DNA of 64,000 nucleotides from positions 21,885,977 to 21,949,976 of the forward strand of contig NC_089275.1 in assembly GCF_963678975.1 (NCBI RefSeq). Reading direction: 5' to 3'. Each line of letters starts with the position of its first letter. Positions within the stretch are counted from its first letter, which is position 1. A program made the position numbers and the translations under genes. A model generated the notes under the pieces. The model had not been told where the DNA came from and ran no database searches. It was given only the letters and a program-made list of their open reading frames with translations. Below, in pieces: positions 13,292 through 58,899 of this stretch. Source of the stretch: Dysidea avara. Taxonomy: Eukaryota > Porifera > Demospongiae > Dictyoceratida > Dysideidae.

Positions 13292-13765
13292 TCATGTAAG
13301 GATATTATGCCTGAACGATTTAACGTCATCATTCATGGCCAGGGCCAGACATGCAGCTAGCTTATTTCTTGGCCGCTCCACTCAAATCTATAGTCAGTAT
13401 TGAGTTTCGTATTGTGTGGTATCAAATTGTTTTGGAATTTCTATGCAGACGGGTACGTAGCTACCCGCACCAGTCATGACGACAACCTGCTGATTATGAT
13501 TATGATTATATACTGGGTCGAGACGGCACAGCTAGCTAATGAATACTCTTCTGGTCAAACACACATGCGCTACAACCCGATATGCAATCTATAGTACATA
13601 AAGACGATACACTGACTTACGGGCTACTGAAGAAGAAAAAGACCAGGTGAAGCAGACCTAGCACGCCGTGATTCCAGGAAACCGGGAACGAAACAAGCCA
13701 GAGTTTGCGGAGTGGAAAACGGAACTTGAACTTTTGAAGACCAACCGCATAGCTATAATTAGCCT

Positions 13766-14965
<1,200 letters not shown>

Positions 14966-14974
14966 GGGGGGGGG

Positions 14975-15104
14975 AGTCCCACGTGGCCAGACCGCTTTTT
15001 CTCCGTCACGGCACTTATCGATTAGAGATTATAAGCGCCTACTCCGAAAAAGCTAATCGATAAGCGCCGTGACGGAGAAAAAGTGGTCTGGCCACGCGAG
15101 ACTA
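14975..15104. mobile_element. MULE-like foldback MITE (copy 2), abutting the GT tract
   Basis: AGTCCCACGTGGCCAGACCG and GGTCTGGCCACGCGAGACTA are the inverted ends; CTCCGTCACGG/CCGTGACGGAG extends the stem. It matches copy 1 at 12336-12472. Runs of G flank it (11 left, 7 right), consistent with insertion into a G run and a target duplication that cannot be sized. Confidence 0.85.
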
Positions 15105-27329: not shown

Positions 27330-27431
27330 GACGAAAGTGATCAAATAATTGCAGCAGCACAGCATGGGGATGTTCAAGTTCTTCTGGATTTATCATCACA
27401 AGGAATTGACATCACTGCTGCTCGTGGAAAG
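27330..27431 (+). CDS. Ankyrin-repeat exon 1
   Basis: Acceptor TTTGTAG, then 34 codons, donor GTAAGT; phase 0 at both ends. The residues IIAAAQHGDVQVLLDLSSQG show the ankyrin helix pattern (A..GD...V..LL..G). At 34 codons it is close to one 33-residue repeat. It joins in frame to 30704 across an intron of about 3.3 kb filled by nested transposons. Confidence 0.85.
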
Positions 27432-30400
27432 GTAAGTATTACATAATTTGTGCAAGCATTTGTACAATACTCTATCATGCCAACAGTGATTTGTATTCAT
27501 ACTAACAGTGGGGTAACGTAGCACAATACTGGAAATTGTAACTACTAAGCACGTATGGTCAGATTGCTTTCTGCAACTGTGGTATTGTAGTCAACACTAC
27601 CAGAGATTCTTGAAATTTAGTGATATAGTTTTTGTTTTATTAAATTATCAGAATTTAATTAGAATGTTTGTTTTGTATCTTTACAGTTTTTATAGAGTCT
27701 GCAAAAAGTTTAGCTAGGTAGTTTGTCCAGTATGTGCAGGTGTATGTGACTAAAACACTTGTTCATCATATAACTTCCCATAATCTGTAAATTATAGAAT
27801 TTAATATGCTGCTATTACACTCTAATTTGAAGTTAACTGGATAAGCAAGCATACACAATTTAACAATATGTTGCAAAAAGAAAAATATGCAAAGAAGTAT
27901 AGAAGAAATTTCAAGGCAATTACAGCAGCTCAGATTTGGTATCTGTCTCACTTTCATTAATAGTACAAAAATGATAGTGATATTCTAACAGAGCAGTCCA
28001 CTACTTTATACATAACTTTTAAGTAGTTACTCTATTTGCAACAGCAGTGAATTAGTCTAAAATATACTATCTGCTTCTAAAATCTTGGATACCATGCTCC
28101 AGAATGGCAGGTGCGTCTGTTAATTGTATGCTTCAAACTCCACTATGTAATTGCCAAGCTTATCTCCTCCCCTGCTCTCATGAATATTCAAAAATCATGC
28201 TTTCAAGTTTCTGTATAATGCATACTTATATCTGTCATACACCAGTACCAGTTTTTGCTTGGCCACATACAACATACTAGCATGTGCGTATAATCTACTG
28301 TTGATATCAAAAACAGTGTAAGTTGCTACTGCAGTGTACAGTAGTGCTGGGCGATATAGCCGACATACAACATATCACGACATATATTTTTTATATCGTG
28401 ATACGATAGCTGGAAATTATATCGCGATATAGTGCACGTGATCTAAGCAGTACAACGTGAGCTCATAAAATGGCATCTCCAGTTTCGCCATTACTCCTGC
28501 TGCACCCACGTCTCGCCCACATCAACGGTGTGGCATAATGTTGGGTATTTTGAAGGGGCTATCTACTTAGATGTGTGTGCAGTGCTTGGGACATGTAGGA
28601 AGCAGTAGACCAGTGAGAAAAGCCACTGTTATTAACCAGCGCCAATTTTCAGCTTGGAATTTGTTAAAGATCGAAATACTCTAATAGAGCAGTCAGTACG
28701 ATACTCTAATAAAACAGTCAGTAGAATATACTAATTATAATACTTGCTCTGAGTTATCTTGATATTAACCCTTTGAGGACCAAAGTCCAATATATTGGAC
28801 GCAAGTACATGGACTAGTATAAGCCGATATAACTACTTATCAGTACACAGTAGAAAGAATTCGCTAATACCACGATACTCACCATGAAATTTCTGACAAA
28901 ATCACACCAAGTATCGCTTGGTTTGAAAAGAATCTCCGCTGCTAGGCCGCCAAGAAAAAGTAGCTCTTCCATTATCGTCCGCCATTACTCTACACCTGCT
29001 ACTTTGATCGGCCATATCTCGATAGTACTTCACCGTAGCGCATCAAACTAAATGCCATTAGACTCAGCACGTGATGGCGATTCGATTTGTATACAAAAAA
29101 ATCACGTGACTACCTCATGAATACGCGATAAAGAAATAACGAAGCGGACATTCAGTGGAGATGACATCGCCTGTTCTTCGCTTCATATCACAAGTACTGT
29201 TTTCTGTAGAACAAAACTGTTATGATATTATTGTTGTGTATGAAACTACCATTAAGTTAATGCCAAACAATAATCCATCTTCGTTTTACAGAAGGCTACT
29301 GCTTTCCTTATAACACAAAGTTACGCATTCCTCCATACTTGAAAATTAATTTGGTCCTCGAAGGGTTAAAAAAGAAAGAGATTGAGTATGTAAAAAAGCC
29401 ATTCCAAAAGCATCTGTACATGTTGTTTTTTAAAATTCCCTGGGGGAGCATGCCCCTCCTAGTTAATCTCTAATTTAAATATCATAATAGATCAAGATGA
29501 TGAAGGTATCGCAGATTAAGTTGTAGGTGAACCGGAAGACTAAGTGTTGTAACTTGCCAGTATACGTATATGCAAATCAACATTTCTTTTAATTATCGTG
29601 TAACTAGCTGTATAAGTGTATATGTGACCTAATTTTAGGAAACCGTCGATATCCGCACAATTTTCAAAATGCATTTTGTTTGTTCTTTGTTTTCTACAGT
29701 GACAGAGGAATGGACTAGCCAAGTTTCAGCTTCCTAAGTTAAGCAGTGTTGGAAATACAGCACTAGACAGCCGGACGAGCAAATAATTTGATATGTACAG
29801 AAGCTATCGAGAAAAGAATCTACAGGCGCTTACATAAACCATCATAACTTACTGATACAACGACGTACAGAGCTGAATCCTGGCTCATTGTGTTCGCCAT
29901 GAACTTGTGCATCCACCAAGGTATAGTTTTTTCCCCAGACATGTTCTTTGTTCGAGAAGGAAGGAAAATTCACTGGATAACGATCGTCGGTAAATTCTTT
30001 CGTCACCGCAACGTAAACAAACGTTTGTAACTTTGGAATTGTCTTGTGTATGGGGATGCAACAAAGATTTTTGTGCTCCTTATGGACAGGCGAACACAAT
30101 GATGCCCAGGATTTATTCATTGGCGGCTTAATTCGCCCACCAGCGAGGTGATAAAAACTTGCATAATTTTTTTCTGGAGCTTGCGTTTTTTACCCATAGT
30201 TTTTAAATGCGTTTTATTACAAAAGTACTCTTGTGCATATATCGACGGTTTTCCAAAATTCGGTCACATATGATGTATTAGCTAATAAATGATCTTATTC
30301 CTGTGTTTTGTGTACAGTGTAGTAGAAAACGATCTGAAAAAAGAAAATAAGTAAAATATTGGTATATATCGTGACATATATTCATATCATGAATAAATTT

Positions 30401-33400
30401 TGCCATGACATATGACATAAAAAAAATCTATATCGCCCAGCACTAGTGTACAGTATATAATTATGTACAAGATGCATGTGTTTGTACAGTATACCACACG
30501 TGTCACTTTGTAGCTATGTAAAGCACAAGGCACTGTAGTGTATCATTTCTGGAGAAATATGCTATGCATTTATCTGCGCATACTTTTAACTAGGCAGAGA
30601 TAGAGCTATAATATATATGTATGTTTCACATAGGGAAAACCTTGTAAATAATACTTTAGCTAATTGAGTGTTACATACATACTGTGTTCTCATTTCATTT
30701 TAGCATGGACAGACTCCTCTAACTGTTGCTGTAATAAGGGGTAACGTTGATTTGGTAAACTACCTGGTAAAGGAGGTCAAAGCTGATTGCAATGAAGTTC
30801 CTCAGGTATATTATTCATTATTGATTAAAGAATAAACAAACTTGTTGAAATGCAAAAATTTGTTCATGAATAATGAGTATCAAAATAATGTAAACAACAG
30901 CATTCAAATCCTGCGCTGATGATAACTGTTATTTGCTGCATGTGCAGCTGGAAATACTAACAACACGAGTAGAATAATTTTAAGTTTGATTAGGGATCAT
31001 AGGCATATAAAAGTAAGGAAACAAGGGAGGTTGCTTACACATGCAGACATATACTAGTGGACATTTAATCCCTTCTTCAGTCATGGTTACAGACTGAAGT
31101 AGATATTAATGTCCACTAATATCCCTAATCAAACTTAAAATTCTTTCTATTTGTTTGTTTACTTTTTGTAATATAAGTACTGGTGAACCAGCACATACCA
31201 CATCAAAATAAAGAATGGTACCACAACTATATATCAACTACAGAAAAAGAAACTAGCCATTACACTTTGTTGTTCCCGTTACAACACAGCACTACAAGTG
31301 AAAACCTTTATGAGAAGTGCCTCTGCAATCAATCCAGTTGTTACAGAAAATGTGGACATTTTTCACTGCAAACATAGGGAAACCATCATGCACTGGCCAC
31401 TGTGAATCAACGCCTTGCACTGTCAGCGAAAAGAATTGGGGTACAAAGATAAGTCCATGATGTGTACATTGTACAAACTGCGGTATGCCAAAAGGCAGCT
31501 GTCAGGCTGAAGCAACATCTAACAGTAAAAAAAATCAAGCCCATAGCCTTAGCCATTACTGAATTACTCTTACTTCAGGCAGGCAGGTAGGCAGTTAGCC
31601 AGTAAAAAATTCTGATCAATAATATTTTCATTCAAAATTCTGTAGCATCTTATCGGAAACATTTTTGGTCACTCTAAAGACATTTTCAGGCTTGATTCTA
31701 CCTCACTGTAACAACCAAGGTGCCATGAATGCTGGTTTTTCTGGTTAACAATTTTCTGGTTTCTGCTAATCTTAAGTGCAAGCCTCAGGTACTACCATAC
31801 TGTATGATGACATGTGTGAACTGCGTTACAATCAAAACATTTTCTGCCTGACAACCATAATCAACAAAGTACTTCAGAAGCTAGGATCAGTAACCTAGAA
31901 TACTCATTCTGCTGTGGTGTTTGACAAACAGTATAATATCCTGGACTTGAATCATTACATTTAAATGGATCAACAAACTCTTTTAAATCCTTGATTTTAA
32001 TTAACTTTCAATTTTAATAATTTGCTTATTTAATGTGTATAAGGTCAAGACACATCTTTGGGTGTTGTATGACCAAGAAAATATTGTACCACACCAGTGT
32101 GATATTTCAAATGGTGAGGTGTTAATAAGATACTGTTTGATGTGGTATATAGGGGTAAAATGAAGTCCAGTGTCAAGTTTACAATAATTATTATTATGTA
32201 TTTTTCACATTTTGCAATATTTTACTGTTGTCGATTCTTTTTTGTGAAGTCAAAAGTCACTATGGGCCAACACGTGTAATCTGTTGTTATATATTTTATT
32301 TAGAAATGGCAAGAGAAGCTGAATGAACTATTGCAAGGTAATTAACATTCCAGATAATAATTATTATGAAACTAGATGTCATTTTGCAACCAGTCCATTG
32401 TGCATTTATTAAGTATTCCTTCTTTACAGCGGCGGAGGAAGTAGTTGATATGAGGGGGGGCTAAGCTGACCCAGACTTATTTCTATAGTTTGGTAAGGTG
32501 AGACCAAAAAAAAAAAAAAAAAAAAGGTCACAACCAACTGACAAGAGCTTTCCACCTCACCAGCTACCATTTCTAGCTGATAAACTACATAAAAATCCTT
32601 ACATAGCTCGCTACACACTGACTACTTTATTAGAGTGACTGCTCTATTAGAGTATCTCGATCTTTATCACGGTTTTCAGCCCCACTCCAAGAAAGATAAT
32701 TTCGGTGTGATATCATTCTGAGGGGGGGCTATAGCCCCCTAGCCCCCCCCCTTTCCGCCGCCTATGCTTCTTTACCTTTTTGAAGGTTACAGAACACCCA
32801 CTGTAGGAATTTCTGCATAGAATATGAACAACTCAGTATGCACAACCACAATTGTGCATGAAGAGTTTTTCATGTTTTGACAATTACAAATGAAAATTAA
32901 TCTGCCTTATGTAGTTTTAAAGTGCTTATTACATGCATGCATGTGAATGAAGCTTGAAGTAGAACAATTATGTCATTATTATTATACGTATACAGTGGCT
33001 TGCAAATATGGTGCATATACCAAGGAGAGCAAACACAAACTGCTTCAAAATCACATGTTAGAGTGTCTGTGTACAAATGTGTATGCGTGTATCACATCCT
33101 AACAAGAAAAGGTTTCCAATGCCATTGTAGGGATTTTCCCACTTTCCCTCATAGTCATGTAGTGTACTGTACTGTGCCTTGTATCACTAAGTTTTATTGC
33201 TGGAACCATAAACTGCATTTTTCAATTATTAATTGCACTAGTTTTTTTAGTTTTTTGCATACGGTACATGTGTAGCCATGACTGCTTTATATATAATTTC
33301 ATTTTATTAACCACACGTCTCTGAAAAACTGAAAGCAGGATATTTTAATAAAAAATACAAGCCTAAAGAGAAGTTAAACCTATACACCTATGAAGACCTA

Positions 33401-36400
33401 CAGACCAACTATGGGGGAATCACAAATATTGGATGCCATGGGCTCAGCAATTACAAGATCGCCTGGAGCAGGGAATGCAGGGTGTCCAATGCTCCATTTA
33501 AGGGCAACAAATATACAATATACAAGGTGTTCAGTGCCATGTCTTGTTGACTAAATCAAAGCTGCAGTTGATTTCAGTTAGATTGTTTAAGGGCATGGTG
33601 ATGTGCTTTTTGATTGTTTAAGGGTATAGTTGTTATTGGATTGTTTTATCCCAGCAAAACAACTAAAAAGTACAACTACAGGTATCTACTCCCTCTTACA
33701 GTATCAAACGGTACAGTCGTACCGTTTAAGTAGGAATCCAGGTGAAATTGTCGCACGCCACCAAAAATTCCGCCTTTAAAAATCATCCTAGAGATATCTT
33801 ATGAGACGAAAATCACCTTTACAGAATAGTACTAGTCCATATAGTACATAAAACAGCATTAAATACAACAAAATGCTTACAGGTGGCCAGATATTAATTT
33901 TTTTTAAATCACCAAAACTCAAATTTTCTCCTTACTGCCTCACTCACTGACCACAGTCGCAAGCCTAGAGCCCAAACGAAGCAGCGCATGGCCACCATTT
34001 TACGCCACAATAACAAACTCACCAGTGGGATGTGCCTTTTGGGTTCCAACGAGTGTGTGCCCTCTGCGCCTTATCTTTTCTTTTATCTTCAATCAGGCTG
34101 CTTGTCTTCTTCTTCATCCAACAAAACCATATCGAGGCATTAATTTTCCGTATCAACACTTTTTTAAACAGCATAATAGATGCTACAAGATTATTTAAGA
34201 CGCTTAGACTACGCTACAGTACAGAGGAATAGATTATATTCCTTACTGATATAATCTATGATGGAGGGTACTGTATGGAGGTACTGGTACTAGATATAGC
34301 TCAATATAGCTTCACGATAGGTCACAAGATCACGTCCATTCTTCATTCTATGCATTATCGATCTATCGATTGAAACCACGATGACACACCCCTTTTGCAC
34401 TAGCTGTATTTCAGTGACCACACACCTTCAATTTGGAAGGCTGACTCGATGTACTCTATAATCGATCAAAACCACGCCTCCTTTTTGGCAAGCGGGCATC
34501 TTGCAGGCTGCCTCGAGATACCCTAACACAGCAGTCACCCTAATAGAACAGTCACATGTTTATAGCTAGCTGTATGCCTTAACAAAAAAACTAAACAAAC
34601 TAGTATATTAAAAATTATAAATTTAAAACTAAAGTAGGAATCCAAACGATAAAAAGTAGTGAAACAAGAGAAGAACAATGGTAGCTAGCTATTACAGCAT
34701 AGTTCAGTGGGAAATACCTACTTTGGCATTGAACACAAAATTATGGTTATATCATGCCAAAGTAGGGATTTCCCACCGAGCTATGCTGTAATAGACTAGT
34801 AGCTACCGTTGTTCTTCTCTTGTTTCACTACTTTTTATCGTTTGGATTCCTATTTTATTTTCAAATTTATAATAGCATAAGCACTTCATATAGTTTCAGT
34901 GACATTTAAATGCATTCCTCTAAGGAAAGCATTGATATCAGAAAACTGATGCCTTCACATGGTTTCATTGCACAAAAAAGAAAAATGGGAAGGCAAAGTG
35001 TAGAAGGCAGATACTCATCCGAACCAGAAAAGGCACATGCCTCATTATTGTGGTGTGAGATGGTGACTATGTGCTGCTTTGTTTGGCCTCTAGCCTAGTG
35101 ACTAGGGCCAGGTAGGCAGGCAAACTAAAACCAGATTTTGGCATTTTTTAAAATTCAATATTCACCTTCTGTAAGTGTTCAATGCTAGATGTGACACCTG
35201 CTTTTCATCACATTATAATATTTCTATTATGGTTTGTAATGTCAGCATTTTGGTGGCACCCTTCATTTCAGAGGAGAACCCTACTAAACAGTACATATAG
35301 TATTGAATAGCTGTGTCCATCTAACAGTCTGTCTGTGAATATAACATTGGAAAATTTTTGTATAGTATAGCCAATGTAATTCACTGCTACCATTCATATT
35401 CTTTATACAGCAACATTAACACTCACGACAAGTTCCTTAATATAGACACCGTATGTATGTATGTATGTATGTATGTACTGTATGATGCTTTAGAATTCTT
35501 AATTATTAAGTGTGATATTTGGAGGTGTAAGCATAATTAGGGGTTTTGTGCTGACAGATCACTTCAAAAAATTGTATTATCAAGCCAAACATGATCTTGG
35601 ATCAGAAAAGTTGCATCTTCTTAAAATATTTATATTTGGTCCTCCTGGAGCTGGGAAGTCGTCACTTCTAAGAGTCCTGCTTGGTGGTGATCCTGATCCA
35701 GTACAAAATAGCACTGGTGTGTGTGATAGGAAACTTGTACAATGTACAATTAGTGTATCATGTACTGGGAACAAATCAACATGGAAGGAAATTCAGTTAG
35801 AAAATGAAGTACAACGATTGCATTCAAAAATTAAAGAAACGCTTGGTAATAAGCCTACAATTCCACAGCAAGTTGATGATGTTCCTAACAGTCATTTACA
35901 AATTGAGGATGATTTCTTTAGTCTCGAATCGGAGCCAACCCATCAGAACGCTTCAGCCATCAGTGATGTACAATTTGATAGTAAACACATTAGCACCCTT
36001 ATAGCTTGTTATGATAGTGGTGGTCAGCCTGAGTATTTTGATGTTATGCCTACACTGACTACTACTCCTACCGGTTACGTAATGGTGCTTGATATGTCCA
36101 AAAGTTTACTTACCAAATGTGCGGAGTTTTACAGAGGTGGCAAAAAATATCCAGAAAACAATAATACCTATTATACCGATGCAGAATTGATGAAAACTGC
36201 TATAGCAAATATTCACACTTCTTTGATTACTGAAAAGATATCCTCAAAATTTGGCCGACTGTTGGTTGTGGGGACACATTTGGATAAGTGTGGTTTGACT
36301 AACTTTGATCAAGATAATGCAGTTGTAGAATTCGAAAATACTATAAAAAGTGAAATATTAAATATCATACATGTCTCAACTATTAAAACAGTAGAACGTC

Positions 36401-39400
36401 AAAATAAAAGACTGCTCCATCCTGTTTCCAACATTGTGAAGAAAGGTAGAGCTGAGATAGCTCAAGAAATACGGACTGCAATAGAAAACATGTCAAAATA
36501 TGAGAAAGCAAGTGAAGACATTCCAGTGAATTGGTTGTTGTTCCAGCTTGAAATTCGGCATAATGATAAATATTACATTACACGTAGCTGTTGCGCTGAC
36601 ATTGCCACAAAATGTTATATTAAAGAAGAAGATGTAGATAGCATTCTGATGTATTTCCATGAACTTGGGGTTTTGCTGTATTACAGAAATATTCCTGCAC
36701 TAAAGCATGTTGTATTTTGTAGTCCTCAGTGGCTGTTTGACAAACTAACTAAACTGATAGAAGTGAAGTATGATCCGCCATGTGACAGAGCAAAACGTGA
36801 TAGAATAAGAAATGGTACGTTTGATAAACAGCTTTTAAAGGACACATACAGTGAAGATTTTATAACCAATGATGTGTTAAACTATCATCATCTTTGTGAA
36901 CTATTTGTTTCCCTTAACATTATGGCCATTTTACCTGGTGAAACTGATCATTACTTCATGCCTGCTCTGTTAAACCCTTCACCAGAAAATATAGACATGT
37001 CAACCTATGGTAGAAAGATTTATGACACTTTGATTGTAAAATTTGAAAGTGAATATGTTCCACGAGGAGTGTTTTGCTGTTTAGTTGTTGAGTGTATGAA
37101 AAATGCTATCGGATGGAGTATTCTACATGGCGAGACAGCTTATAAGGATTTGATAATATTTCAGATTTCAACTGACCTTGACTTATATGTATTTCTCAAA
37201 GATAAAATTGAGTCTATCACATTTGAAATTTATCACAACAACAAGAGTTCTTTACAGATGGGCCCTAATAAACTGTGCTGCACACTGAGTGAATCATTAA
37301 AAGCAGTCTGCTCACAGCTTAAATTGAGTAGTGAAGTCTGTTTAGGATTTTCCTGCAAGCGTCCAACTTGTGGTGGATTTGCTTGGGTTCAAAATGAACT
37401 TCATTTTAATCAAAAAATATCTGTTTGTGAAAAGTGTAATCACAGGTGGCGGCTACAAAATGACCAAATGATCTGGTTCTCACCACAAAAGGTACATAAG
37501 CATTTTAACATTGTCATTCTTCATCTACAAAATACTTGTTGTCCTAACTATTAGGCTGGAAATAGCATTGAGTATAATTTTAAGTATAATTTTATAATAA
37601 AAAGTTGTGCTGAAACAAATAGCATTTTTTGGTTGTGAACAAAACAACCGATTGTTTGATTATTCTTTAAGCATGAATTAGTCAGCACCAAGTTCTTTGT
37701 TGGGCAATAATTAAGGTAAAGCATGAAAAGTAATTAATTTTATCTTCTTTTTTTTTCAGTGTGACTATGCCACTTCGTCCAATCTCAAGCTTCTAGGTTG
37801 GCTTCATCCATCTGATCACAGCTAATGAATATTTGAATAGTGTGTTAATTAATTGAACAATGTCATGCCAACTGAATAGTCAATATCCGAATAATCATTT
37901 CAGCACTAATAAAAAGGAATTTTGTAATCTGGAATTTGGAATCAGTAATTTTGTATAATGTGCATGCATTCAAAATTGAAAATACTCTAATAGATCTTAA
38001 AGTCACCTATGTATATGATGTAGTTACTGGCTATAAATTCCCTAATAGTGCAGTCAGATAGATAAAATTTAATACTAATTATTAAGGAATAAAACTCAAG
38101 TATATTGTATACAGCAACTGCCACATAAATGGCAAATCAAAACTCTTAAGCCTTCACTGCTGTAATGGCATGCACAAATTATAACAATGGTTTGAAATCT
38201 CGAGGTTTATCTTATTGTTTTGTATACTATTCTATTCATGTGTATCATATAGTGTCTACATACAAGCTACCACAATATAAATCACAATAATGAAACAATG
38301 GCCATGTTTGCATGATTGGATTTAGGTGTTTCTGTTCTGTCTTATTACAAAGTGTGGCCTGTAGGTAATGCATACTTTAATATGCTTTATTTTAATACAA
38401 GTAATGACATCATGGATATATTAAGTTAGGTAATCCTAAGGCTGCAGCACATGTTGCTGTCAGGCCTTCAGTGCTGGCCACTGTAAAGTGCTAATAATAA
38501 ATAATAATAATATGTATAGCAAAACTAATATACCTTATAGAGAGAAACTTTGGCAGGGGTAAACTTTGGCGAATAGCAACATTTGGCGAAATAAACTTTG
38601 GCGAATTCAAGTTCAATCTGTAGCTATGAAGATGCTAATCTCAGGCGTTACGAGTAATTGGCGGGTTAAACTTTGGTGAATTTGTAGCGAATCGCCAAAT
38701 TCGCCAAAGTTTTCCCCCGCCAAAGTTTCTCTCTATACGATATAGCATACAAGTGCTAACTTAATGCCACTGGTGTATCTACTCTGAGGTATAGGAATGT
38801 GTATGTACACATGTGTTTTCTTTAATGTATTTTTCTCTATTTGGAACAGTTGCCATCACAACAAGGACAAAGTGGTATGTATGTATGTATGTATGTATGT
38901 ATGTATGTATGTATGTATGTATGTATGTATGTATGTATGTATGTATGTATGTATGTATGTATGTATGTATGTATGTATGTATGTATGTATGTATGTATGT
39001 ATGGATGTATGTATGTGTAATGTGGTTGTACGAGTTTATGAATTGAATTTCAATGTTATTCTATAATTCACAGAAGTGATAGTGTATGTGAAATTACACA
39101 CTGTAAATTCAGAAACACGAAGTTCATACTAATGGTATGCTCCCTGCAGTCACTTAGTATGATGATCATACGTACTTGTACTGGTATCGTAGATAGGCCT
39201 GTGTCAAATATGCCAGCATAATAAAAAGCATAATAGGCTGGAGTGCTATGCCAGCATAATGCTGGAATATTAAGTGGATATTTCAAACTATGGAGCTTTA
39301 TTCCATGAAACTAGATTGATACTCCCTAATAGAGCAGTATGTGGAAACTGCAAACTGCAATAGAGCACTTAAAATGCATTGTACATTGCTCCTTAGATCG

Positions 39401-42400
39401 ATACTCTCTAATAGAACAGTCATTTTATAGTTAAATATTCTAATAGAGCATTCACTGATTAAAATATTCCAAGATGATTGTAACAAATGTTGTTAACTTA
39501 GGAGCATAATGCAAGCATAATAGGAACACTGAAAGAGCATAATGGGTGAAAAATTTGGGAAATTCCTGAAAGCATTTTGGGAAAAATTTTGAGCATATTT
39601 GACTCAGGCCTAATTGTAGATTTTAGTTTTTGTAGCACCTTGTACAGGCAACTATAGCCTTTTGCGTACCGTATGAAGTGTGATCATCAACTAAGTGACT
39701 GTAGGGAGCATATCATTAGTATGAATTTCATGCTTCTGAATTTACAAGTGCAATGTTTAAAGTAGCTGTGTTGTTATACAGAACACAAAATAAATACGTG
39801 TAGGATAATTAGTTATCATTTGTGTCTAATAATAAGGTACACAAAAGGCTATAAGTGCCTGTACAAGGTGCTACAAAAACTAAAATCTACGATAACAGTA
39901 CAAGGCAAATTATTTACAATAACAAATAACAGGACACTCAGACATATAAAAGCAACAACTAACTAACAAACTAAAATACACAAAGTTTTAACTTAAAATT
40001 AAGTCATGGGTAAGGATATGGATGAAATTCTATGTGGTTAATCCTTATGGTGATTATAGACGTTTTGTGGTGAGAAGAACTGCATTAACCACAATATATA
40101 GCTTGTATACAAAGTATACACTTTGGGTGGTGGGTTTGCATGAGTTGTACACATAGCTAGAGTAGAATTAGAGGTATTCTACACTAATGCGTACCACTTG
40201 CTACACAGTACTCTATGTCATTGCAACAAAGCAAATCCCACTGAAGAAATGTACATGAGTCCTCCGCACAGACTGGATTCTTTCAATTCAAATGCACATT
40301 TGCATTGCTTGCATATTTAAACTGGTTTCCTGTAACCAGTTAGTTGGCTTGTGTGTAGTACAATTCCATTGGTATTGTTTTCTCATTGTGTAGCACTGAG
40401 AGTGGCTGCTGATAAAGATAAAGGAGTGTTTACATCAAATTACACTAAATTTTGCAATATTATAATGGATTTAGAAAATCTTTTGAAATATTTTGTGACT
40501 GCAAGCATTATAAATATTGATGATCAAAGTGAAATCCTAGCTCCTCCCAGACAGACAGACAAAGTTACACTACTGTTGAGACACATTTCAGGTCCACTGG
40601 AGGCAGGTGATACTAAACCATTCCGAATGATGCTGGATATTATGGAAAAGCATGGCAACCTAGCTACAAAAACATTAGCTATTGAAATAAAGAAGTCTCT
40701 TATTACAAACATAAAAGGTAAATTAATAGATGCACACCTAAAGGTTCTGAAGAGATACCGTATGTATAATATCATAATATAATAAAAATGCACAGGCTTG
40801 TTATTTAAGCCACAAACTGGCCAATGTTTTAACAAGGAAATATGTTAGAGTTTACAAATTTCAGCCACGAATATGATAATCATGTGACCAGGCCTGCAAA
40901 AACAGGAATGTACATATTAGCACATAACTTTTTCAATTTTTGTAACTATTATGCCATTTCCACACAATTACCATGATTCACTTTCTTTTTGTGTAAGAAA
41001 TTTATTGCATACGAAAATTATTTTACAACTAGAAAAGCAAATTGCAGTATTGAACACTGTTATCTGGTTTTGTAATACATGTACAAGGTAAAGATGCAGC
41101 TATTCTCTATTCTGATACTGGAATATTTGTGACTGTCTCTGGGAAAACCGGTCTTATCGCCCATTTAAAAGTATCGAGAAACGTTGGTTCTAAATATTCT
41201 GTGTGTTGTAGCTGGCCAATGGTGGTAGCTACGCATACCAAATTTTCACACGTTTCACAACAATTTCTTACCTTCCTGATCATCCACTGAAGAAGTAGTC
41301 AACAGCTAAGTTTCCCGCCATTTTAGATAGTTTTTAAACTGAGGTTGTCTGTATCAGGCGAGCTCCAGAAGGGTGGGAGGCGGGGGCCCTGGAAGGCGGG
41401 CGGGCAAGATGGTGTTCAAAAATTGAAAAGAGACGTGCTGGGATGAATTAGGCCAAGTTATAGGCCATTCAGGGCTCAGAACTGGCTAAAATGAAAGGAA
41501 ATTTACAGCACAGGTCATTGTCCAACACCACAGAGCTGTACAGCCACACACAGCCATCTCCTGGTTGGCCAGGGCTCCTCCATCAAGACCCCAGACCACT
41601 CGTACGGCTCGCCACTGTGCTCTAGAAAAGCAGCCAGCAAAAGCAGACCACTTTACTCTGGTCGACTGTGGCAGTGAAACTTGATAGTGCATTCATTAAG
41701 CTTTGTGTTTGTGTGAAAAATCAAACTTCCTGTCTTGGGCGATAAGAACGGTTTTCGTAGATCCAGTCACATTTGTTATGTGATGGGATGTAGTTGGTGT
41801 CCTGTTTTGCAGGCTTAGTTCCACATAGATTGTGTTGTGTTTTGCTTTAATGTACAGTACTGTATGATGCTTAGCTATTTACCAGCTTTTAAAACCACTA
41901 ATTTAATGTTTTATTTTAGGTTGCAGTCTTCTACAAAATAGGTTATTTCACAAGATGCAACTTTTATTTACTAAACCTGTGATAATGTGTTCACCCAGTA
42001 TATTATTGGTGAATAATTATGGCCAATACTGCTACCTATTCTGTGCCAGACATTCTTTTCTGAATTTTATATACAGGGTAGATACGTGGTCCTGCAGACA
42101 GGCTTAGTATCTACTCAAGTACATACATTGACTCCTGTGTTGCTCTCTCCTACTCACAGTTAGACTATTGTCTAAACTTTGACTCCCCAGAAATACCAAC
42201 ATGTTAACTTAATAGCAACACAGACACATGCATTTTGCAGGATATAATCTGTAACATGCATATAATAAAAATATCTTTTGACTGTTACTACGTATATTCA
42301 TCTCACATTCAGAATTGGATGGGTTGTCAGGCATTAACACAGGACAGAAGCTAGCTGCTGTAACACAAACAACTGCAACACAAACAACTGCAACACAAAC

Positions 42401-43058
42401 AACTGCAACACAAACAACTGCTCCAAATCTGTCTATATTAGGTACCATATGATTATAAAGTATAAATTATAGAGGAGCAGTAAAAAATGTACTTTAGATA
42501 CCCTAGAGTCTATATGCATGTGTTTGTATCTGTGTGTTCAGTGAGGCAGCTAGAGTGTATACACATATGTGTTTGTTGTGTGTGCACAGTGTGTGTATGT
42601 GAGTGCATGCACGCATGTGTGTATGTGTGTGTGTGTGTGTGTGTGTGCGTGTGTGTTAGTGTTGCATTGATATGGGATTTTGCCGATATTCCGATAACCG
42701 ATATTGGATAGTATTTTCAAGCCGATAAAGGTAGCCGATCCGATATAGCACAGCATGTCCATCTTGTAGCAATTTTTACTAGAACTTTGACTATGAAGGG
42801 TCAATTTAACTTGTTTATAGCAGCAGTATTGCTATAACGACAGCTGACAGTACAATGAAGCAGTAATAACAACGTTTTAATGTAGGAATATGCGACTCGA
42901 TGCATTTGTAAATATGACGAGCATGTATTTCTAAATACATACATGATATCTGTATCTGCTGCTTTTTTCATCATGGCGCCGATCCGATACCGATATACAA
43001 AAAACACAGCCGATGCATGGTTTTTCCGATAACCGATCCGATTATCGGTGCAACACTA

Positions 43059-43121
<63 letters not shown>

Positions 43122-44178
43122 TACGTGTGTGTGTGTGCACGCACGCACGCACGCATGTGTGTATGTGTCGTGTGTGTGCTAGGCCTGCGTCAAATACGCC
43201 AGCATAATAAAAAGCATAATAGGCTGGAATGCTATGCCAGCATTATGCTGGCATATTAGAATATTTCTGTATTGTACATAGCTCCTTAGATTGATACTCT
43301 TTAATAGAACAGCCATTTTGTAGTAAAATACTCTAATAGAGCATTCACTGATTAAAATGTTCCATAATAATCATCACAATTGTTGCTAATTTAGAAGCAT
43401 AATGCAGGAACACTGAAAGAGCATAATGGGTGAAAATTTGGGGAAATTCCTGAGAGCATTTTGGGCAAAATTTTGAGCATATTTGACTCAGGCCTAGTGT
43501 GTGTGCATGCGTTGTGTGTATGTGTGTAGTATGCATGTGTATATATATGTATTGTGTGTGTGTATCATTGCAATTGGGTCAAACATAAGCCAATTTGGTG
43601 TTAATTAATTAAATGTTAGGGACCCACTAGTATAGCTTTACTATTTTAATAGCTATAGTTATGATGAATGAATAGAAAGCATTTCCTAGAAAAACAAAAT
43701 TTGTGCTATTTACTGTGCAAGTTTGCTTTGCATGTGTGTAACATAGCACTTACAATAGATTTGATTCTCAAAGTACATGTTGCAAGGTAGGATGTAACTT
43801 CAATAAAAGAATTTGTTCAAATTCTTAATGCCACGCAGCACCTAGATTGTTTTGTACTAATGAATACAAAGATTACTTACATTTACAGATAAGACTGTAG
43901 CCATGAGTACATTCATCAGGATAGCTCCTATGATGGCTATGCATTGGGAAGATGTTGGATATTGTTTGGGAGTGGAGGATGAAGATATGGAGATCATCGA
44001 AACTGAGGTGTTAAGATCTGGCGATGTGAGGTCAGCTTTTAAGAAAGTAATGAAATCATGGATCAGGTCTACAAGCGGTAAAACACCAAAGACATGGAAG
44101 ACATTTGTGATGGTGCTACAAGAACTATGCATTAACACTGATATCATAGTTAAACTACTGCAAGAGGAACCTGCTTAG
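27330..44178 (+). CDS. ANK-Roc-COR-CARD-death domain gene (multi-exon, 5' end uncertain)
   Basis: Predicted exons: 27330-27431, 30704-30805, 32304-32337, 35558-37491, 38850-38874, 40394-40717, 42313-42441 and 43889-44178 (stop TAG). An alternative last exon is at 37760-37825. All junctions have AG/GT borders and agree in phase (0,0,1,0,1,1,1). The product would have ankyrin repeats, a Roc GTPase with a COR dimerisation domain, a CARD-like domain, a TQTTA linker and a C-terminal death domain. Known relatives: DAPK1 has ankyrin repeats, Roc-COR and a death domain after its kinase; no kinase is seen here. A likely role is GTP-regulated scaffolding in cell-death or immune signalling in the cytoplasm (inference). 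The alternative is two neighbouring genes, with the first ending at 37825. The true start and further ankyrin exons upstream are not resolved. Confidence 0.7.
28769..29365. mobile_element. piggyBac-like MITE in TTAA
   Basis: TTAA (28765-28768), CCCTTTGAGGACCAAA, interior, TTTGGTCCTCGAAGGG, TTAA (29366-29369). The inverted ends agree at 15 of 16 positions. TTAA duplication with CCC at the tip is the piggyBac signature. The 597-bp interior holds no transposase. Confidence 0.88.
29623..30268. mobile_element. Element with TGTGACC ends, possible TA duplication
   Basis: The left end TGTGACCTAATTTTAGGAAA and the mirrored right end (TGTGACCGAATTTTGGAAAA when reversed) match over about 30 bp into ACCGTCGATAT. 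TA lies on both sides. A 92-codon minus-strand open frame at 29842-30120 lies inside; it matches nothing I know and its ATG is not supported by other signals. Confidence 0.75.
30704..30805 (+). CDS. Ankyrin-repeat exon 2
   Basis: Acceptor CATTTTAG, then 34 codons, donor GTATAT; phase 0 at both ends. HGQTPLTVAVIRGNVDLVNY is a textbook ankyrin start (G.TPL..A...G....V..L). The exon has the same length and phase as the preceding one, which suggests the two arose as repeat-sized exon duplicates. Confidence 0.88.
31020..31480 (+). repeat. Intronic copy of the 25985-26530 repeat
   Basis: Collinear blocks as listed for 25985-26530. The two copies lie in the same orientation on either side of both ankyrin exons. 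Confidence 0.7.
32304..32337 (+). CDS. Short linker exon between ankyrin and Roc
   Basis: Acceptor TATTTAG, then KWQEKLNELLQ plus one base, donor GTAATT. Phase is 0 in and 1 out. It joins in phase to the Roc-COR exon at 35558 and restores an Asp codon. A short helical linker is plausible. Confidence 0.65.
32428..32766. mobile_element. Intronic element with AGCGGCGGA ends and 9-bp TSD
   Basis: It begins AGCGGCGGAGGAAG and ends TTTCCGCCGCCTATG. CTTCTTTAC flanks both sides exactly (32419-32427, 32767-32775). An inserted TGACTGCTCTATTAGAGTAT motif lies near 32635, a poly-A run is at about 32506-32525 and C/G runs lie near both ends. It lies in the intron before the Roc-COR exon. Confidence 0.85.
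34635..34852. repeat. Inverted repeat, about 95-bp arms
   Basis: TAGGAATCCAAACGATAAAA (34635) is mirrored at 34852, with pairing in to CTTTGGCAT/ATGCCAAAG around a 24-nt loop. It is a foldback MITE in the intron before Roc-COR. Confidence 0.88.
35558..37491 (+). CDS. Roc-COR exon
   Basis: A single 1934-nt exon between acceptor GCTGACAG and donor GTACAT (phase 1 in, 0 out). The Roc GTPase has a P-loop GPPGAGKSS (35638-35664), a G3 motif DSGGQPEY (36012-36035) and a G4 motif GTHLDK (36271-36288), the THxD form usual in Roc. An acidic insert of about 60 residues lies between G1 and G3. COR follows from about 36520 (IPVNWLLFQLEI, then YFHELGVLLYYRN and FCSPQWLFDKL). The C-terminal part carries CKRPTCGG and CEKC, a possible zinc-binding knuckle. 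Known chemistry of the family is GTP binding and slow hydrolysis with COR-driven dimerisation. No kinase domain is attached. Confidence 0.95.
37760..37825 (+). CDS. Alternative terminal exon (stop)
   Basis: A strong pyrimidine tract and TTTTTTCAG acceptor precede 21 codons (starting CDYATSSNLKLL) and TAA. Phase 0 matches the donor at 37491. Using it would end the protein right after COR, without the CARD-like and death domains. An AATAAA lies 83 bp downstream. If this is the only real ending, the downstream exons belong to a separate gene. Confidence 0.6.
   Translation, partial: CDYATSSNLKLLGWLHPSDHS
37908..37913 (+). terminator. Polyadenylation signal AATAAA
   Basis: Canonical AATAAA 83 bp after the TAA of the alternative terminal exon, followed by a GT-containing stretch. 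It is consistent with a short transcript ending here. Confidence 0.55.
38424..38490 (-). repeat. Dispersed repeat (copy 2 of 4, see 18153)
   Basis: TTAGGTAATCCTAAGGCTGC, AGCACATGTTGCTGTCAGGC and CTTCAGTGCTGGCCACTGTA are the reverse complement of the 18153 core. Confidence 0.75.
38536..38737. mobile_element. MITE-like inverted repeat with CTTTGGCGAA motifs
   Basis: TATAGAGAGAAACTTTGGC (38536) is mirrored by GCCAAAGTTTCTCTCTATA (ending 38737). The interior repeats AAACTTTGGCGAAT in both orientations. Length 202 bp. No target duplication is clear. Confidence 0.85.
38850..38874 (+). CDS. Predicted 25-nt micro-exon joining COR to the CARD-like exon
   Basis: A pyrimidine-rich TTTTTCTCTATTTGGAACAG acceptor, then eight codons (LPSQQGQS) plus one G, then donor GTATGT. 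Phase is 0 in and 1 out, exactly what is needed to join the donor at 37491 to the acceptor at 40394 and form an Ala codon. The donor is the first unit of the GTAT microsatellite. Evidence is splice-site and phase logic only, with no conserved sequence. Confidence 0.45.
38874..39016 (+). repeat. (GTAT)n microsatellite of about 140 bp
   Basis: Pure GTAT units to about 39000, then one ATGG variant. It begins at the predicted micro-exon donor. A shorter GTAT run lies near 35452-35477, upstream of the Roc-COR exon. The Met-Tyr-Val-Cys open frames across it are artefacts. Confidence 0.95.
39194..39612. mobile_element. TAGGCCTG-type hAT-like element, 8-bp TSD (7/8)
   Basis: It starts TAGGCCTGTGTCAAATATGC and ends GCATATTTGACTCAGGCCTA. 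Flanks are ATCGTAGA (39186-39193) and ATTGTAGA (39613-39620). The interior has several CTAATAGAGCA/GTCA motifs. Related copies lie at 43180-43496 and 24866-25222. It sits in the intron before the CARD-like exon. Confidence 0.85.
40394..40717 (+). CDS. CARD-like death-fold exon
   Basis: Acceptor TTCTCATTGTGTAG, 324 nt, donor GTAAAT; phase 1 at both ends. The upstream frame has no ATG, so an internal exon is more likely than a start. Residues LENLLKYFVTASIINIDDQS, DKVTLLLRHISGPLEAGD and FRMMLDIMEKHGN follow the CARD helix pattern (acidic-rich loop, DQ.EI, DK...LL..I, F..ML.I). CARDs mediate homotypic binding between signalling proteins. A related death-fold subtype is possible. Confidence 0.8.
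41457..41688 (+). repeat. Dispersed repeat, copy 2 (partner at 4769-4991)
   Basis: Collinear with 4769-4991. It lies in the intron after the CARD-like exon. It is more GC-rich than copy 1, which shows several C-to-T-type differences against it. Confidence 0.75.
42313..42441 (+). CDS. Linker exon with TQTTA repeats
   Basis: Acceptor CACATTCAG, 129 nt (43 codons), donor GTACCA; phase 1 at both ends, matching the CARD-like and death-domain exons. It encodes ELDGLSGINTGQKLAAV, then four TQTTA units from a 15-bp coding minisatellite (about 42363-42421), then APNLSIL. This looks like a flexible Thr/Gln-rich spacer. The exon could be skipped without changing the frame. Confidence 0.65.
42657..43058. 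mobile_element. hAT-like element (TAGTGTTGCA ends) inserted in a GT microsatellite
   Basis: It starts TAGTGTTGCATTGATAT and ends ATTATCGGTGCAACACTA, with GTGTGTGT on both sides (42649-42656 and 43059-43066). Subterminal CCGATA motifs relate it to 5970-6583. The flanking GTGTGTGT is compatible with an 8-bp duplication but cannot prove it inside a GT repeat. Confidence 0.82.
43059..43172. repeat. GT / GTGC microsatellite
   Basis: A short GT run, about twelve GTGC units, a GTAC interruption, then GT and CACG units. Open frames here are artefacts. Confidence 0.92.
43180..43496. mobile_element. TAGGCCTG-type hAT-like element in the GT microsatellite
   Basis: It starts TAGGCCTGCGTCAAATACGC and ends TTTGACTCAGGCCTA, and aligns with 39194-39612 with a shorter middle. 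Flanks are GT repeat, so the duplication cannot be read cleanly. Confidence 0.82.
43889..44178 (+). CDS. Death-domain terminal exon
   Basis: Acceptor ATTTACAG, phase 1, 96 codons, stop TAG at 44176-44178. HWEDVGYCLGVEDEDMEIIE, SAFKKVMKSWIRSTSG and KTWKTFVMVLQEL follow the death-domain pattern (W..VG..LG......I, then a ML..W-like helix and TW..L...L). Death domains recruit other death-fold adaptors. I find no AATAAA close behind the stop; the first one I notice is near 45543. Confidence 0.85.
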
Positions 44179-49782: not shown

Positions 49783-51232
49783 TTACATATGCATGTTGCT
49801 AAGAAGAGGAATATTAGCATCTACAGACCACACTAATGCACTGTGTCCGCTTGGTAGGTGAGTGATAGTAGAGTAGGAGAACATGACAGAGGACACAATG
49901 AGCAAAAGTTTGGTGTAGGATAATAGGAATAGTGTAGAAAGTACTGGTATTGCCCTATGTGCTGTGAGTCTGTATTTTAGTGGAGTAACGACTTGCTATG
50001 ATGAGTGAGATAGCAATACAAATGAGATAAATAACATTTTAGCAGTCATCCATGCCATCATAGAAACACATCTTAATTCCTAAATCAAAATTGGCAAATG
50101 AAATGAAAGTAGTAAAGACATTATATTGGTCTTGAGGAAAGAGCATTGTTCTATAAACACTAGTGATGTTCATGTATAAAATGAACATGTTAATGGTTCC
50201 TATAGTTACTGTGAGGTTGAGAAGAAAAAGTAACACCACCAACATGAGACCCACTATTGCTATTGGTATGATGAACAACAGATAAATATTTGAACATTGT
50301 TGACACTTTGTTGATCCAAATACATTCAAGTTACTGAAACCTTGTTGAAATTGTCCACGCAATGTACCAGATCTTGTACACTTACACTGTGTATTGGGAT
50401 CTGATAGTTTTAAATGTGTTGAATATGGTAAATAATGGAAAGATGAACAATGTAGAGAAGTCTGATAAGAGTTGTCATTGTCTAAGCATAGACCCAACTA
50501 TGACGAGGTCATAATATAGTTTGATCATTAATGTCACTAGTAATTCCATAATTGTGAAGGGATGGGAAGCAGTCACATGTACCATTGATTTTAACAAAAC
50601 CTAATGGACATGGAATTTGATTAATATAATAAACATCCAGATGGATCTTACTGTTGACGTCGCTTCTTATAAACAGTTCACACCATCCTTCCTCAGGAAA
50701 TGCAATAGTGTACATCATCTTCACTGTACTTTTTGTGATGAATTTGTCACAACACAAGCAGAACTTGGAATGTTGTTGTTTACATAAAATACTTTAGCTG
50801 TTACAACATCAGCTCCTCCTAATAATTTATTAGGATTTAAAGACCATGGCAGGATCAATGTTTGGCCAGGATATAACATACCAAAGTTATCCTGGTGGCA
50901 GTCATAGTGTTTCTCAACACAAAGACAAAGTGTGTTATCTTTAGTACTACAAGGTAGGATACTACAACTCCATCACTTATGTACTGAATGTACTGCTTGC
51001 AATTGTTTACATAAAGAGGTTGAACATCTTTACTACCAAACACCGACTGTTCTAACCATGCACTTGCAATGGGTAACAGGTAAGTTATTACAGTATATGC
51101 AAATATTTTTGATTGTTCATTATTGTTTTTAAATAAGTAGTTATTGGGATTAATTTGATCATCGCATATTGACAAAAACAGAAAGGGTATAAGTGTATTG
51201 ATCTGCATGAGCAACAATGGCAAACTTTTCAT
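49783..51232 (-). pseudogene. Multi-pass membrane receptor-like pseudogene
   Basis: Read on the minus strand through at least four frame breaks: an N-terminal segment (from 51232), a Cys-rich extracellular part (HYDCHQDNFGMLYPGQTL in one frame; CPLGFVKINGTCDCFP in the next), CQQCSNIYLLFIIPIAIVGL and LLFLLNLTVTIGTINMFILY as membrane segments, ISFANFDLGIKMCFYDGMDD, then after another shift LSTLFLLSYTKLLLIVSSVM and VWSVDANIPL. I recognise this order from a large sponge/cnidarian family of unknown function. Some Cys of the extracellular domain are lost (GTLRGQFQQGF, where I recall C.GQCQQG). Stops and shifts rule out an intact protein from this copy. Confidence 0.7.
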
Positions 51233-51492
51233 ACTGATTTTGTATAATGTTTATAATGGTGTTGCTTGAGATCAACATGTAAAAAAATTCCTTTGAATGC
51301 TAGCCAAATATAAGCCTTGTATAATATAAAAAAATTATTTAAATTCAACATAGCTACTATATATTGCACTAAACAGTGCTTTTAATGCATTTATATTCTT
51401 CTGTTGGACTAACAAATCCATTCTACTATACATGGTTCTTTAACTTTTCCAGATTATATGAATGCATGTAACATTATAGTTGTACAGCTAAA

Positions 51493-58010: not shown

Positions 58011-58490
58011 TTAGATGCTGTCAGTTCCGTCATCTTCGTGTATCAATCTCTTGAAGTCTTCGTATGTCAGTGACCCGCTACCATCTTGATCGACTTCAGC
58101 TATCATCGTTTGCGCTTGCTCCTCTGTTATGTCTTTACCTAGCTCTCTACACAGCTGTCTCAGTTCTATCGCTGACACATAGCCGTCGCCATCCTTGTCG
58201 AATATACTAAACACGGTCTTCAGCTGCCTGTTCTCTTGTGAAACAGTCCGATTGAGGGTGTGTCTTGCTACGTAAGAAGCAAACTCCTCGAAATCAATAT
58301 CTCCTGTGTGGTTTGCATCCACAGCTCCAAGTATCTCCGCGGTTTCATTAGGGTTGGGATGAAACCCGAGTGATTGCAAGATACAGTTGATCTTCTCTCT
58401 CGTTATCTTACCGCTGCCATCGCGATCCATAAGCTCGAAAGTTTGGCGCAACAACGGCAAATTGTTGCTGATAAAAACGTGCGTTTCCAT
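58011..58490 (-). CDS. Calmodulin-like EF-hand protein, 159 aa, single exon
   Basis: Starts at an ATG (58488-58490) and runs to TAA (58011-58013) with no intron. Four EF-hands lie at residues about 11-41, 47-77, 88-118 and 124-153, in two pairs as in calmodulin. The loops are DRDGSGKITREK (22-33), DANHTGDIDFEE (58-69), DKDGDGYVSAIE (98-109) and DQDGSGSLTYED (134-145). Position 12 is the usual Glu in loops 2 and 3, Asp in loop 4 and Lys in loop 1, so loop 1 probably binds calcium poorly. The C-terminal LGKDITEEQAQTMIAEVDQD is strongly calmodulin-like. At 159 residues it is slightly longer than calmodulin (149) because of the N-terminus and tail. A cytosolic calcium sensor is likely; targets are unknown. 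GC content is higher than in the flanks. Confidence 0.95.
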   Translation of the reverse strand: METHVFISNNLPLLRQTFELMDRDGSGKITREKINCILQSLGFHPNPNETAEILGAVDANHTGDIDFEEFASYVARHTLNRTVSQENRQLKTVFSIFDKDGDGYVSAIELRQLCRELGKDITEEQAQTMIAEVDQDGSGSLTYEDFKRLIHEDDGTDSI

Positions 58491-58899
58491 CTCTACCTGT
58501 TGTCTGTAATGTTTAGTTTTCTGCTAAACAGAAAAAAAATTCGTCTTTTACTGTACCCCTGCAGGCAAATGTGTAAATTACCTTACGCAATTTCCTGTGC
58601 GAAGACAGCAAACTGAAAATACAATCCAAACCACAGAGATAAATACTGTATGATTGAACAAACAATCTAAGAGTTGGCAGTCAAAACAATTAATCGTTTA
58701 ACAAGTTCACATCCTTACAGGGCTGTGTACACTGACCACAGCTTTGTCATAGTCAGCAGTCTTACACCCCCAAACACAGCAAACAATGCATGGTGATGGA
58801 AATCAAATTTATTGAATAGCACAACAACAAACAAATCTTGTGTCTTCCATTTCCTACTGTGTCCTTAATCATTACCATAACAGCTGGATATTCACTCAC

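What the first reader, a model, noticed from the sequence alone, without database searches (positions are those of the whole stretch)
27330..44178. One locus may encode ANK-Roc-COR-CARD-DD with a switch to a form lacking death-fold domains
Seen: ankyrin, Roc-COR, CARD-like and death-domain exons in a row on one strand, with splice phases that agree when joined through a 25-nt micro-exon (38850-38874). A competing phase-0 exon (37760-37825) supplies a stop and AATAAA. Known: DAPK1 ends in ankyrin-Roc-COR-death domain; a CARD between COR and the death domain is not an arrangement I know. Inference: alternative splicing could decide whether the GTPase scaffold carries its signalling output, in an immune or cell-death pathway.
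Basis: partly seen in the sequence, partly recalled or inferred. Interest (0 to 1): 0.78.

Follow-up and report, generated by a model that had tools for sequence, protein, structure and literature searches.

The report
Sponge GTPase-CARD-death-domain fusion gene
One gene, probably of a sponge, appears to join an ankyrin-GTPase scaffold to two cell-death interaction domains, and it belongs to a very large family of such GTPase genes in this genome; the proposed splice switch to a short form rests on a stretch of repetitive DNA and is not supported.

Summary
Joined, they give one 979-residue open frame: two ankyrin repeats, Roc-COR, a 25-nt micro-exon, a CARD-like exon, a Thr/Gln-rich linker and a death-domain exon.

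The fusion is well supported. A second locus (A, C1:2310014-2320406, minus strand) has Roc-COR, micro-exon, CARD, linker and death exons in the same order and phases. A third (B) has Roc-COR, micro-exon and CARD. A distant relative on C6 has the same phase plan with introns of 58 and 53 nt. Where a CARD-like or death-like place lies near Roc-COR, it is nearly always downstream on the same strand; most such places are not near Roc-COR.

The splice switch is not supported. The competing exon 37760-37825, and its AATAAA, lie inside a ~310-bp dispersed repeat with at least 39 other copies. It was not found in A or B.

ROCO proteins with CARD and death domains are reported in Trichoplax, so this is a variant of a known kind. 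New here, as far as I could search, are the ankyrin-Roc-COR-CARD-death chain and the scale (at least 150 COR-A loci). No transcript was available; the first exon is not found.

The parts
27330..27431 (+). ankyrin-like exon 1 (phase 0 to 0); first exon found, has no start codon
   Evidence: borders; no Pfam hit alone; Ank_2/Ank_4 stretch spans both ankyrin exons in the joined protein; a 61% identical place at C4:31897310, upstream of paralogue F
30704..30805 (+). ankyrin repeat exon 2 (phase 0 to 0)
   Evidence: Pfam Ank_4 4.2e-7, Ank 1.4e-6; 53% identical exon in paralogue F
32304..32337 (+). 34-nt exon KWQEKLNELLQ (phase 0 to 1)
   Evidence: borders; similar short stretch in paralogue F and, by eye, in L050
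35558..37491 (+). Roc-COR exon, with a Cys-rich C-terminal segment; phase-0 donor
   Evidence: COR-A 5.5e-15, Roc 2e-4; LRRK1 7.4e-5 for residues 354-505; 70 Roc-COR matches in own genome
37607..37914 (.). copy of a dispersed repeat, in the intron
   Evidence: 39 other scored places, 69-83% identical, both strands
37760..37825 (+). proposed alternative last exon CDYATSSNLKLLGWLHPSDHS-stop; lies wholly in the repeat; not supported as a functional exon
38529..38744 (.). MITE-like element with 46-nt terminal inverted repeats, about 100 bp upstream of the micro-exon
38850..38874 (+). 25-nt micro-exon (phase 0 to 1), needed for the frame to enter the CARD exon
   Evidence: 22 of 25 nt identical in A and 18 of 25 in B, with AG/GT borders
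40394..40717 (+). CARD-like exon (phase 1 to 1)
   Evidence: Pfam CARD 0.032 alone, 15 of 15 members given match CARD; 67% and 58% identical exons in A and B
42313..42441 (+). Thr/Gln-rich linker exon with a 15-nt minisatellite (phase 1 to 1)
   Evidence: linker exons read as homologous in A and L050 (weak tblastn E 0.19 and 0.71, same place and phase)
43889..44178 (+). terminal death-domain exon with stop codon
   Evidence: Pfam Death 0.02 alone, 4 of 4 given match Death; same terminal exon in A; low-confidence model whose first 11 Foldseek hits are death domains, E 0.18-1.1

Best explanation
A single spliced gene of a large ROCO family encodes a scaffold, kinase-free as far as found: ankyrin repeats, Roc-COR GTPase/dimerisation unit, micro-exon hinge, CARD-like domain, flexible linker, death domain. 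Shown from sequence: exon order, phases, and their conservation in paralogues. Inferred: ankyrin repeats sense or dock, the GTP state and COR dimerisation control oligomerisation, and clustering presents CARD and DD as seeds for homotypic recruitment of CARD/DD adaptors and caspases. It would thus work as an NLR- or DAPK1-like inducible platform in innate immunity or cell death. Reading into the death-fold part needs the 25-nt micro-exon; without it the frame stops one residue after the Roc-COR exon.
For: Open joined frame with AG/GT borders. Paralogue A: Roc-COR, 25-nt micro-exon, CARD, linker, DD, same order and phases, same kind of terminal exon. Paralogue B: Roc-COR, then micro-exon and CARD, the interval from Roc-COR to CARD being 708 nt. 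Distant C6 gene: Roc-COR donor, 58-nt intron, 67-nt exon (phase 0 to 1), 53-nt intron, CARD-like exon (phase 1 to 1), leaving little room for a separate promoter. A phase-0 GT donor candidate lies 0-30 nt past the aligned Roc-COR end in the window and 9 of 11 paralogue regions; in the other two (H, M) the first ones lie 150 and 132 nt on. Linkage: 21 of 70 Roc-COR matches have a CARD-like place within 5 kb downstream on the same strand, against 0, 1 and 0 in the three control orientations; 18 of 150 COR-A places have a death-like place within 10 kb downstream on the same strand, controls 0, 0, 0. Purifying selection between window and A: dN/dS about 0.26 Roc-COR, 0.24 CARD, 0.19 DD (ratios of the values).
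Against: No transcript was available. CARD and Death score below Pfam cut-offs in this protein; both AlphaFold models are low confidence (pLDDT 47 and 52); PDB profile searches gave nothing significant. The DD is more diverged than the rest between window and A: pS 0.68 (0.53-0.84) against 0.45 (0.39-0.50) for Roc-COR, so it may have its own history. B shows no DD or linker within 7.3 kb. Locus C is a CARD exon with no Roc-COR in the 6.7 kb upstream and no micro-exon. L050 has linker and DD exons with no Roc-COR or CARD in 5.3 kb. 129 of 150 listed CARD-like places are not within 5 kb downstream of a listed Roc-COR match. Only window and A have both CARD and DD. Function is inferred from domains alone.
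Confidence: 0.72

Rival explanations
1. Two neighbouring genes: an ANK-Roc-COR gene that ends at or after 37491, and a CARD-linker-DD adaptor (RAIDD/CRADD-like layout, recalled) with its own promoter.
For: CARD and DD each occur elsewhere with no Roc-COR nearby (locus C; L050); introns of 1358 and 1519 nt in the window leave room for a promoter (from the coordinates).
Against: The conserved micro-exon has no ATG and fits a phase-0 donor upstream. In B the whole Roc-COR to CARD interval is 708 nt and in the C6 gene 178 nt (58+67+53).
Confidence: 0.1
2. Fusion only to CARD: the transcript is ANK-Roc-COR-CARD, while linker-DD belongs to another gene.
For: DD divergence differs from that of Roc-COR; B has no DD in 7.3 kb; A's 3' end with the DD is separately duplicated at C1:2423k at 97-98%.
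Against: Linker and DD exons in A and window keep phase 1 and order, and I recognised no first exon before them; the CARD donor is phase 1 in window, A, B and C (A, B and C by eye).
Confidence: 0.12
3. Regulated alternative last exon 37760-37825 makes a short ANK-Roc-COR form without death-fold domains.
For: By a crude score its acceptor is the strongest in 37492-40393 (18, against 11-14 for the seven other acceptors of this gene that were scored at the right border); phase 0, stop and AATAAA are present.
Against: The exon lies inside a dispersed repeat. The one copy read elsewhere (C13) has CAA for CAG and frame-breaking indels. Not found between Roc-COR and CARD in A or B. AATAAA occurs 60 times in the 64 kb.
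Confidence: 0.06

Closest known systems
ROCO proteins of Trichoplax adhaerens (PMC4104024, passages read)
   Same: Roc-COR with CARD and death domains among the flanking domains; at least 17 genes
   Different: No ankyrin-Roc-COR-CARD-DD chain is mentioned in the passages seen; the figure was not available; here at least 150 COR-A loci
DAPK1
   Same: Ankyrin repeats, Roc-COR and C-terminal death domain in this order (recalled; the order also appears in the abstract of PMC12365538 as listed)
   Different: No kinase motif found upstream by a crude pattern scan of the + strand; only two ankyrin repeats found; CARD-like domain before the death domain
Sponge NLRs: CARD- or DEATH-NACHT-LRR (PMC12909245, abstract, first part of the Results and passages)
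   Same: Death-fold domain on an NTPase scaffold; large lineage expansion
   Different: Roc-COR instead of NACHT, ankyrin instead of LRR, death-fold domains C-terminal instead of N-terminal
Brown algal LRR-ROCO genes (PMC11378527, passages read)
   Same: ROCO genes proposed as immune receptors, with exon shuffling and alternative splicing
   Different: LRR sensors; no death-fold output in the passages seen

Membership tests
ROCO (Roc-COR) proteins | COR domain next to Roc | tested here: met
   COR-A 56 bits, cut-off 35.3
ROCO (Roc-COR) proteins | Roc GTPase domain with P-loop | tested here: inconclusive
   Roc 22 bits, cut-off 27; GPPGAGKSS, DSGGQPEY and THLD are readable in the exon (motif meaning recalled)
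DAPK1 | N-terminal Ca/calmodulin protein kinase | tested here: inconclusive
   no match to two kinase patterns in 1-27330, + strand; patterns are crude, exons may split them, and the gene's first exon is not found
DAPK1 | ankyrin, Roc-COR, terminal death domain in order | tested here: met
   order and frame; domains (Death below cut-off in this protein)
CARD domain | Pfam CARD over curated cut-off | tested here: not met
   14.7 bits against 23.9 for this exon; relatives do better, best 9.8e-9, 15 of 15 given match at E<=0.1. Therefore called CARD-like
Death domain | Pfam Death over curated cut-off | tested here: not met
   15.4 bits against 22.6; best relative 1.4e-4; Foldseek first 11 hits are death domains but E >= 0.18 on a low-confidence model. 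Therefore death-domain-like by the strict test
NLR | NACHT NTPase with LRRs | tested here: not met
   no NACHT or LRR listed for the joined protein at E <= 0.5

The most novel reading that the evidence does not exclude
The micro-exon, not the repeat-borne exon, is the switch. In this family a tiny exon of length 3n+1 (25 nt in the window and A, 25 or 31 in B, 67 in the C6 gene; the four genes looked at) stands between a phase-0 Roc-COR donor and a phase-1 CARD acceptor. Skipping it stops the frame 1, 28 and 29 residues into the CARD exon in window, A and B, giving a scaffold without death-fold output, or a decayed message. Regulated inclusion would gate death signalling across an expanded ROCO receptor family. 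In the window the gate's donor is the first unit of a (GTAT)35 array and a MITE-like element lies just upstream, so inclusion may vary between alleles. The 3n+1 length follows from the intron phases and is not itself evidence of regulation.
Probability: 0.15. Interest if true: 0.75.

Novelty: new variant of a known kind. Interest (0 to 1): 0.55.

Why it matters
If confirmed by transcripts, an early animal lineage built a second large class of death-fold scaffolds on Roc-COR GTPases beside NLRs. That bears on how LRRK/DAPK-type GTPases relate to immunity, and it gives a concrete family in which to test whether Roc-COR dimerisation nucleates CARD or death-domain assemblies. At least 150 COR-A loci in one genome compare with four human ROCO proteins (PMC3995007, abstract as listed).

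Tried and rejected
Short-form switch: rejected as above. Chance micro-exon: random 25-mers of the window interval reach 22 or more matches in A's interval in 11 of 2000 draws, and 18 or more in B's in 25 of 2000; these draws ignore the required AG/GT borders. With the borders required, over 14 sequences, no place other than the three micro-exons exceeds 17 of 25 (the three micro-exons were the queries, so window, A and B match themselves). Structure: single-sequence AlphaFold of the CARD and DD exons gave low confidence; only the DD model was searched. Profile search of the PDB with the CARD family gave nothing at E <= 0.001; up to E 1 it listed V-ATPase subunit D first (0.058), a fusion of the CARD protein ASC (0.092) and several CARD entries from 0.48. 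The DD profile listed only a ribosomal protein (0.92). First exon of the gene: ankyrin searches found only the two known exons in the window. The peptide search with the short exon did not complete. My first exon joins used wrong borders for two exons; corrected.
Full report
What was checked. The window is G000:C4:21885977-21949976 of a 550.8-Mb assembly in 108 contigs. The size and an N50 of about 40.5 Mb (my arithmetic from the lengths of C1 to C6 seen, assuming that contigs are numbered by size) fit the sponge Dysidea avara, reported as 575 Mb, N50 41 Mb, 15 chromosomes (PMC12909245, abstract). This is inference.

The exons. The reported exons have AG/GT borders and compatible phases. Corrections to my own first joins: the short third exon is 32304-32337 and the Roc-COR exon 35558-37491. 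The joined product is 979 residues with a single terminal stop. No start codon was found: the gene must begin upstream of 27330. Domain scores are given in the observation check.

The fusion is conserved. Paralogue A (C1, minus strand; Roc-COR 70% identical) has the micro-exon GTGCCATCACAAGAAGGACATAGTG with AG and GT borders, the CARD exon, a linker exon beginning AATTGGA as in the window, and a terminal death exon with the same phase and a stop at the corresponding place. Paralogue B (C1, plus strand, 64%) has Roc-COR, micro-exon (25 nt, or 31 nt if the upstream AG is used) and CARD; linker and DD were not found in 7.3 kb. A distant C6 gene keeps the same phase plan with a 67-nt exon and introns of 58 and 53 nt; its CARD-like exon matches the window's (3.3e-11) but not Pfam CARD. 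A phase-0 GT donor candidate lies 0-30 nt past the aligned Roc-COR end in the window and in 9 of 11 paralogue regions (A, B, D, E, F, G, I, J, K); in H and M the first candidates are 150 and 132 nt on. Several regions hold more than one candidate.

Genome-wide linkage. Of 70 Roc-COR matches (69 of 328 candidates scored; two rows are pieces of one C2 place), 21 have a CARD-like place within 5 kb downstream on the same strand; controls: downstream opposite strand 0, upstream same strand 1, upstream opposite strand 0. The 21 are not independent: 7 share a spacing of 824-828 nt on C6 and 3 one of 3449-3479 nt. The other 129 of the 150 listed CARD-like places are not within 5 kb downstream of a listed Roc-COR match. 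With COR-A as anchor: 14 of 150 for CARD within 5 kb (controls 0, 1, 0) and 18 of 150 for death-like places within 10 kb (controls 0, 0, 0); both together only in the window and A. The CARD list holds 150 matches (150 of 280 candidates scored) and the death list 62 (150 of 277 scored), and both depend on likeness to the window's exons, so linkage counts are lower bounds. COR-A itself: 150 of 150 scored places over the cut-off, of 365 candidates.

History of the parts. Between window and A, synonymous differences per site are 0.45 (0.39-0.50) for Roc-COR, 0.49 (0.37-0.62) for CARD and 0.68 (0.53-0.84) for DD. Roc-COR and CARD fit one duplication; the DD has diverged more. The nearest relative of the window's DD is at C1:2743386 (59%). 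That locus (L050, 5.3 kb) has a weak ankyrin-like stretch, a KLNELL-like stretch read by eye and two linker-like stretches, but no Roc-COR or CARD match. A's DD end is duplicated at C1:2423k at 97-98%. The death module thus seems to move between genes, as phase-1 exons would allow (inference).

The short form. 37760-37825 has the best-looking acceptor in the interval by a crude score (that score for the Roc-COR exon was taken at a wrong border and is void). It lies inside a repeat of about 310 bp, window 37607-37914, with 39 other scored places at 69-83% identity on both strands (40 of 495 candidates scored, one being the window itself). The one copy read (L054) has CAA for CAG and indels that break the frame. 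The exon was not found between Roc-COR and CARD in A or B (chance-level hits elsewhere in those regions). A young exonised repeat, as with Alu exonisation (recalled), remains possible but would not be a conserved switch.

Literature. In the listings of searches (open-licence PMC only; at most 20 rows seen of each, where up to 291 papers matched) and the passages read, I saw no ankyrin-Roc-COR-CARD-DD protein and no report of a ROCO expansion in sponges. CARD and death domains on Trichoplax ROCO proteins are in print (PMC4104024, passages; repeated in PMC11378527, passages). Aplysia has TIR proteins with ROC and COR (PMC9334734, passages). The legend of a figure in PMC12909245 lists COR among domains drawn with D. 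avara NLRs. Supplements were not consulted (cap of zero).

Mechanism. Shown: gene anatomy and conservation. Inferred: ankyrin docking, GTP-regulated Roc-COR oligomerisation, CARD and DD recruitment. The frame-gate idea for the micro-exon is stated as the novel case.

Noticed in passing
window 38875-39016: The micro-exon's donor GTATGT is the first unit of a (GTAT)35 array, so many identical donors follow at 4-nt steps; only every third keeps the frame.
   Followed up: no
G000, whole genome: At least 150 COR-A loci over the Pfam cut-off, 29 on C6, 23 each on C4 and C10: a very large ROCO expansion.
   Followed up: partly
window about 13760-15020: About 1.25 kb of (CA/GT)n dinucleotide repeat, seen as open frames of alternating residues.
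   Followed up: no
window 58014-58523, minus strand: Uninterrupted calmodulin-like EF-hand frame of 170 residues (named by eye, no family search).
   Followed up: no
window 50042-51250, minus strand: Two frames with hydrophobic, membrane-like stretches, perhaps a receptor C-terminus (by eye).
   Followed up: no
L036 2665-2970 (paralogue E) and the joined L034/L035 region (paralogue D): Weak death-domain-like frames upstream of Roc-COR (E-values 4e-4 and 0.011), so some relatives may carry the domain at the N-terminal side.
   Followed up: no
L031 3571-3807 (near C1:469591-469809): A second CARD-like place upstream of paralogue B's Roc-COR.
   Followed up: no
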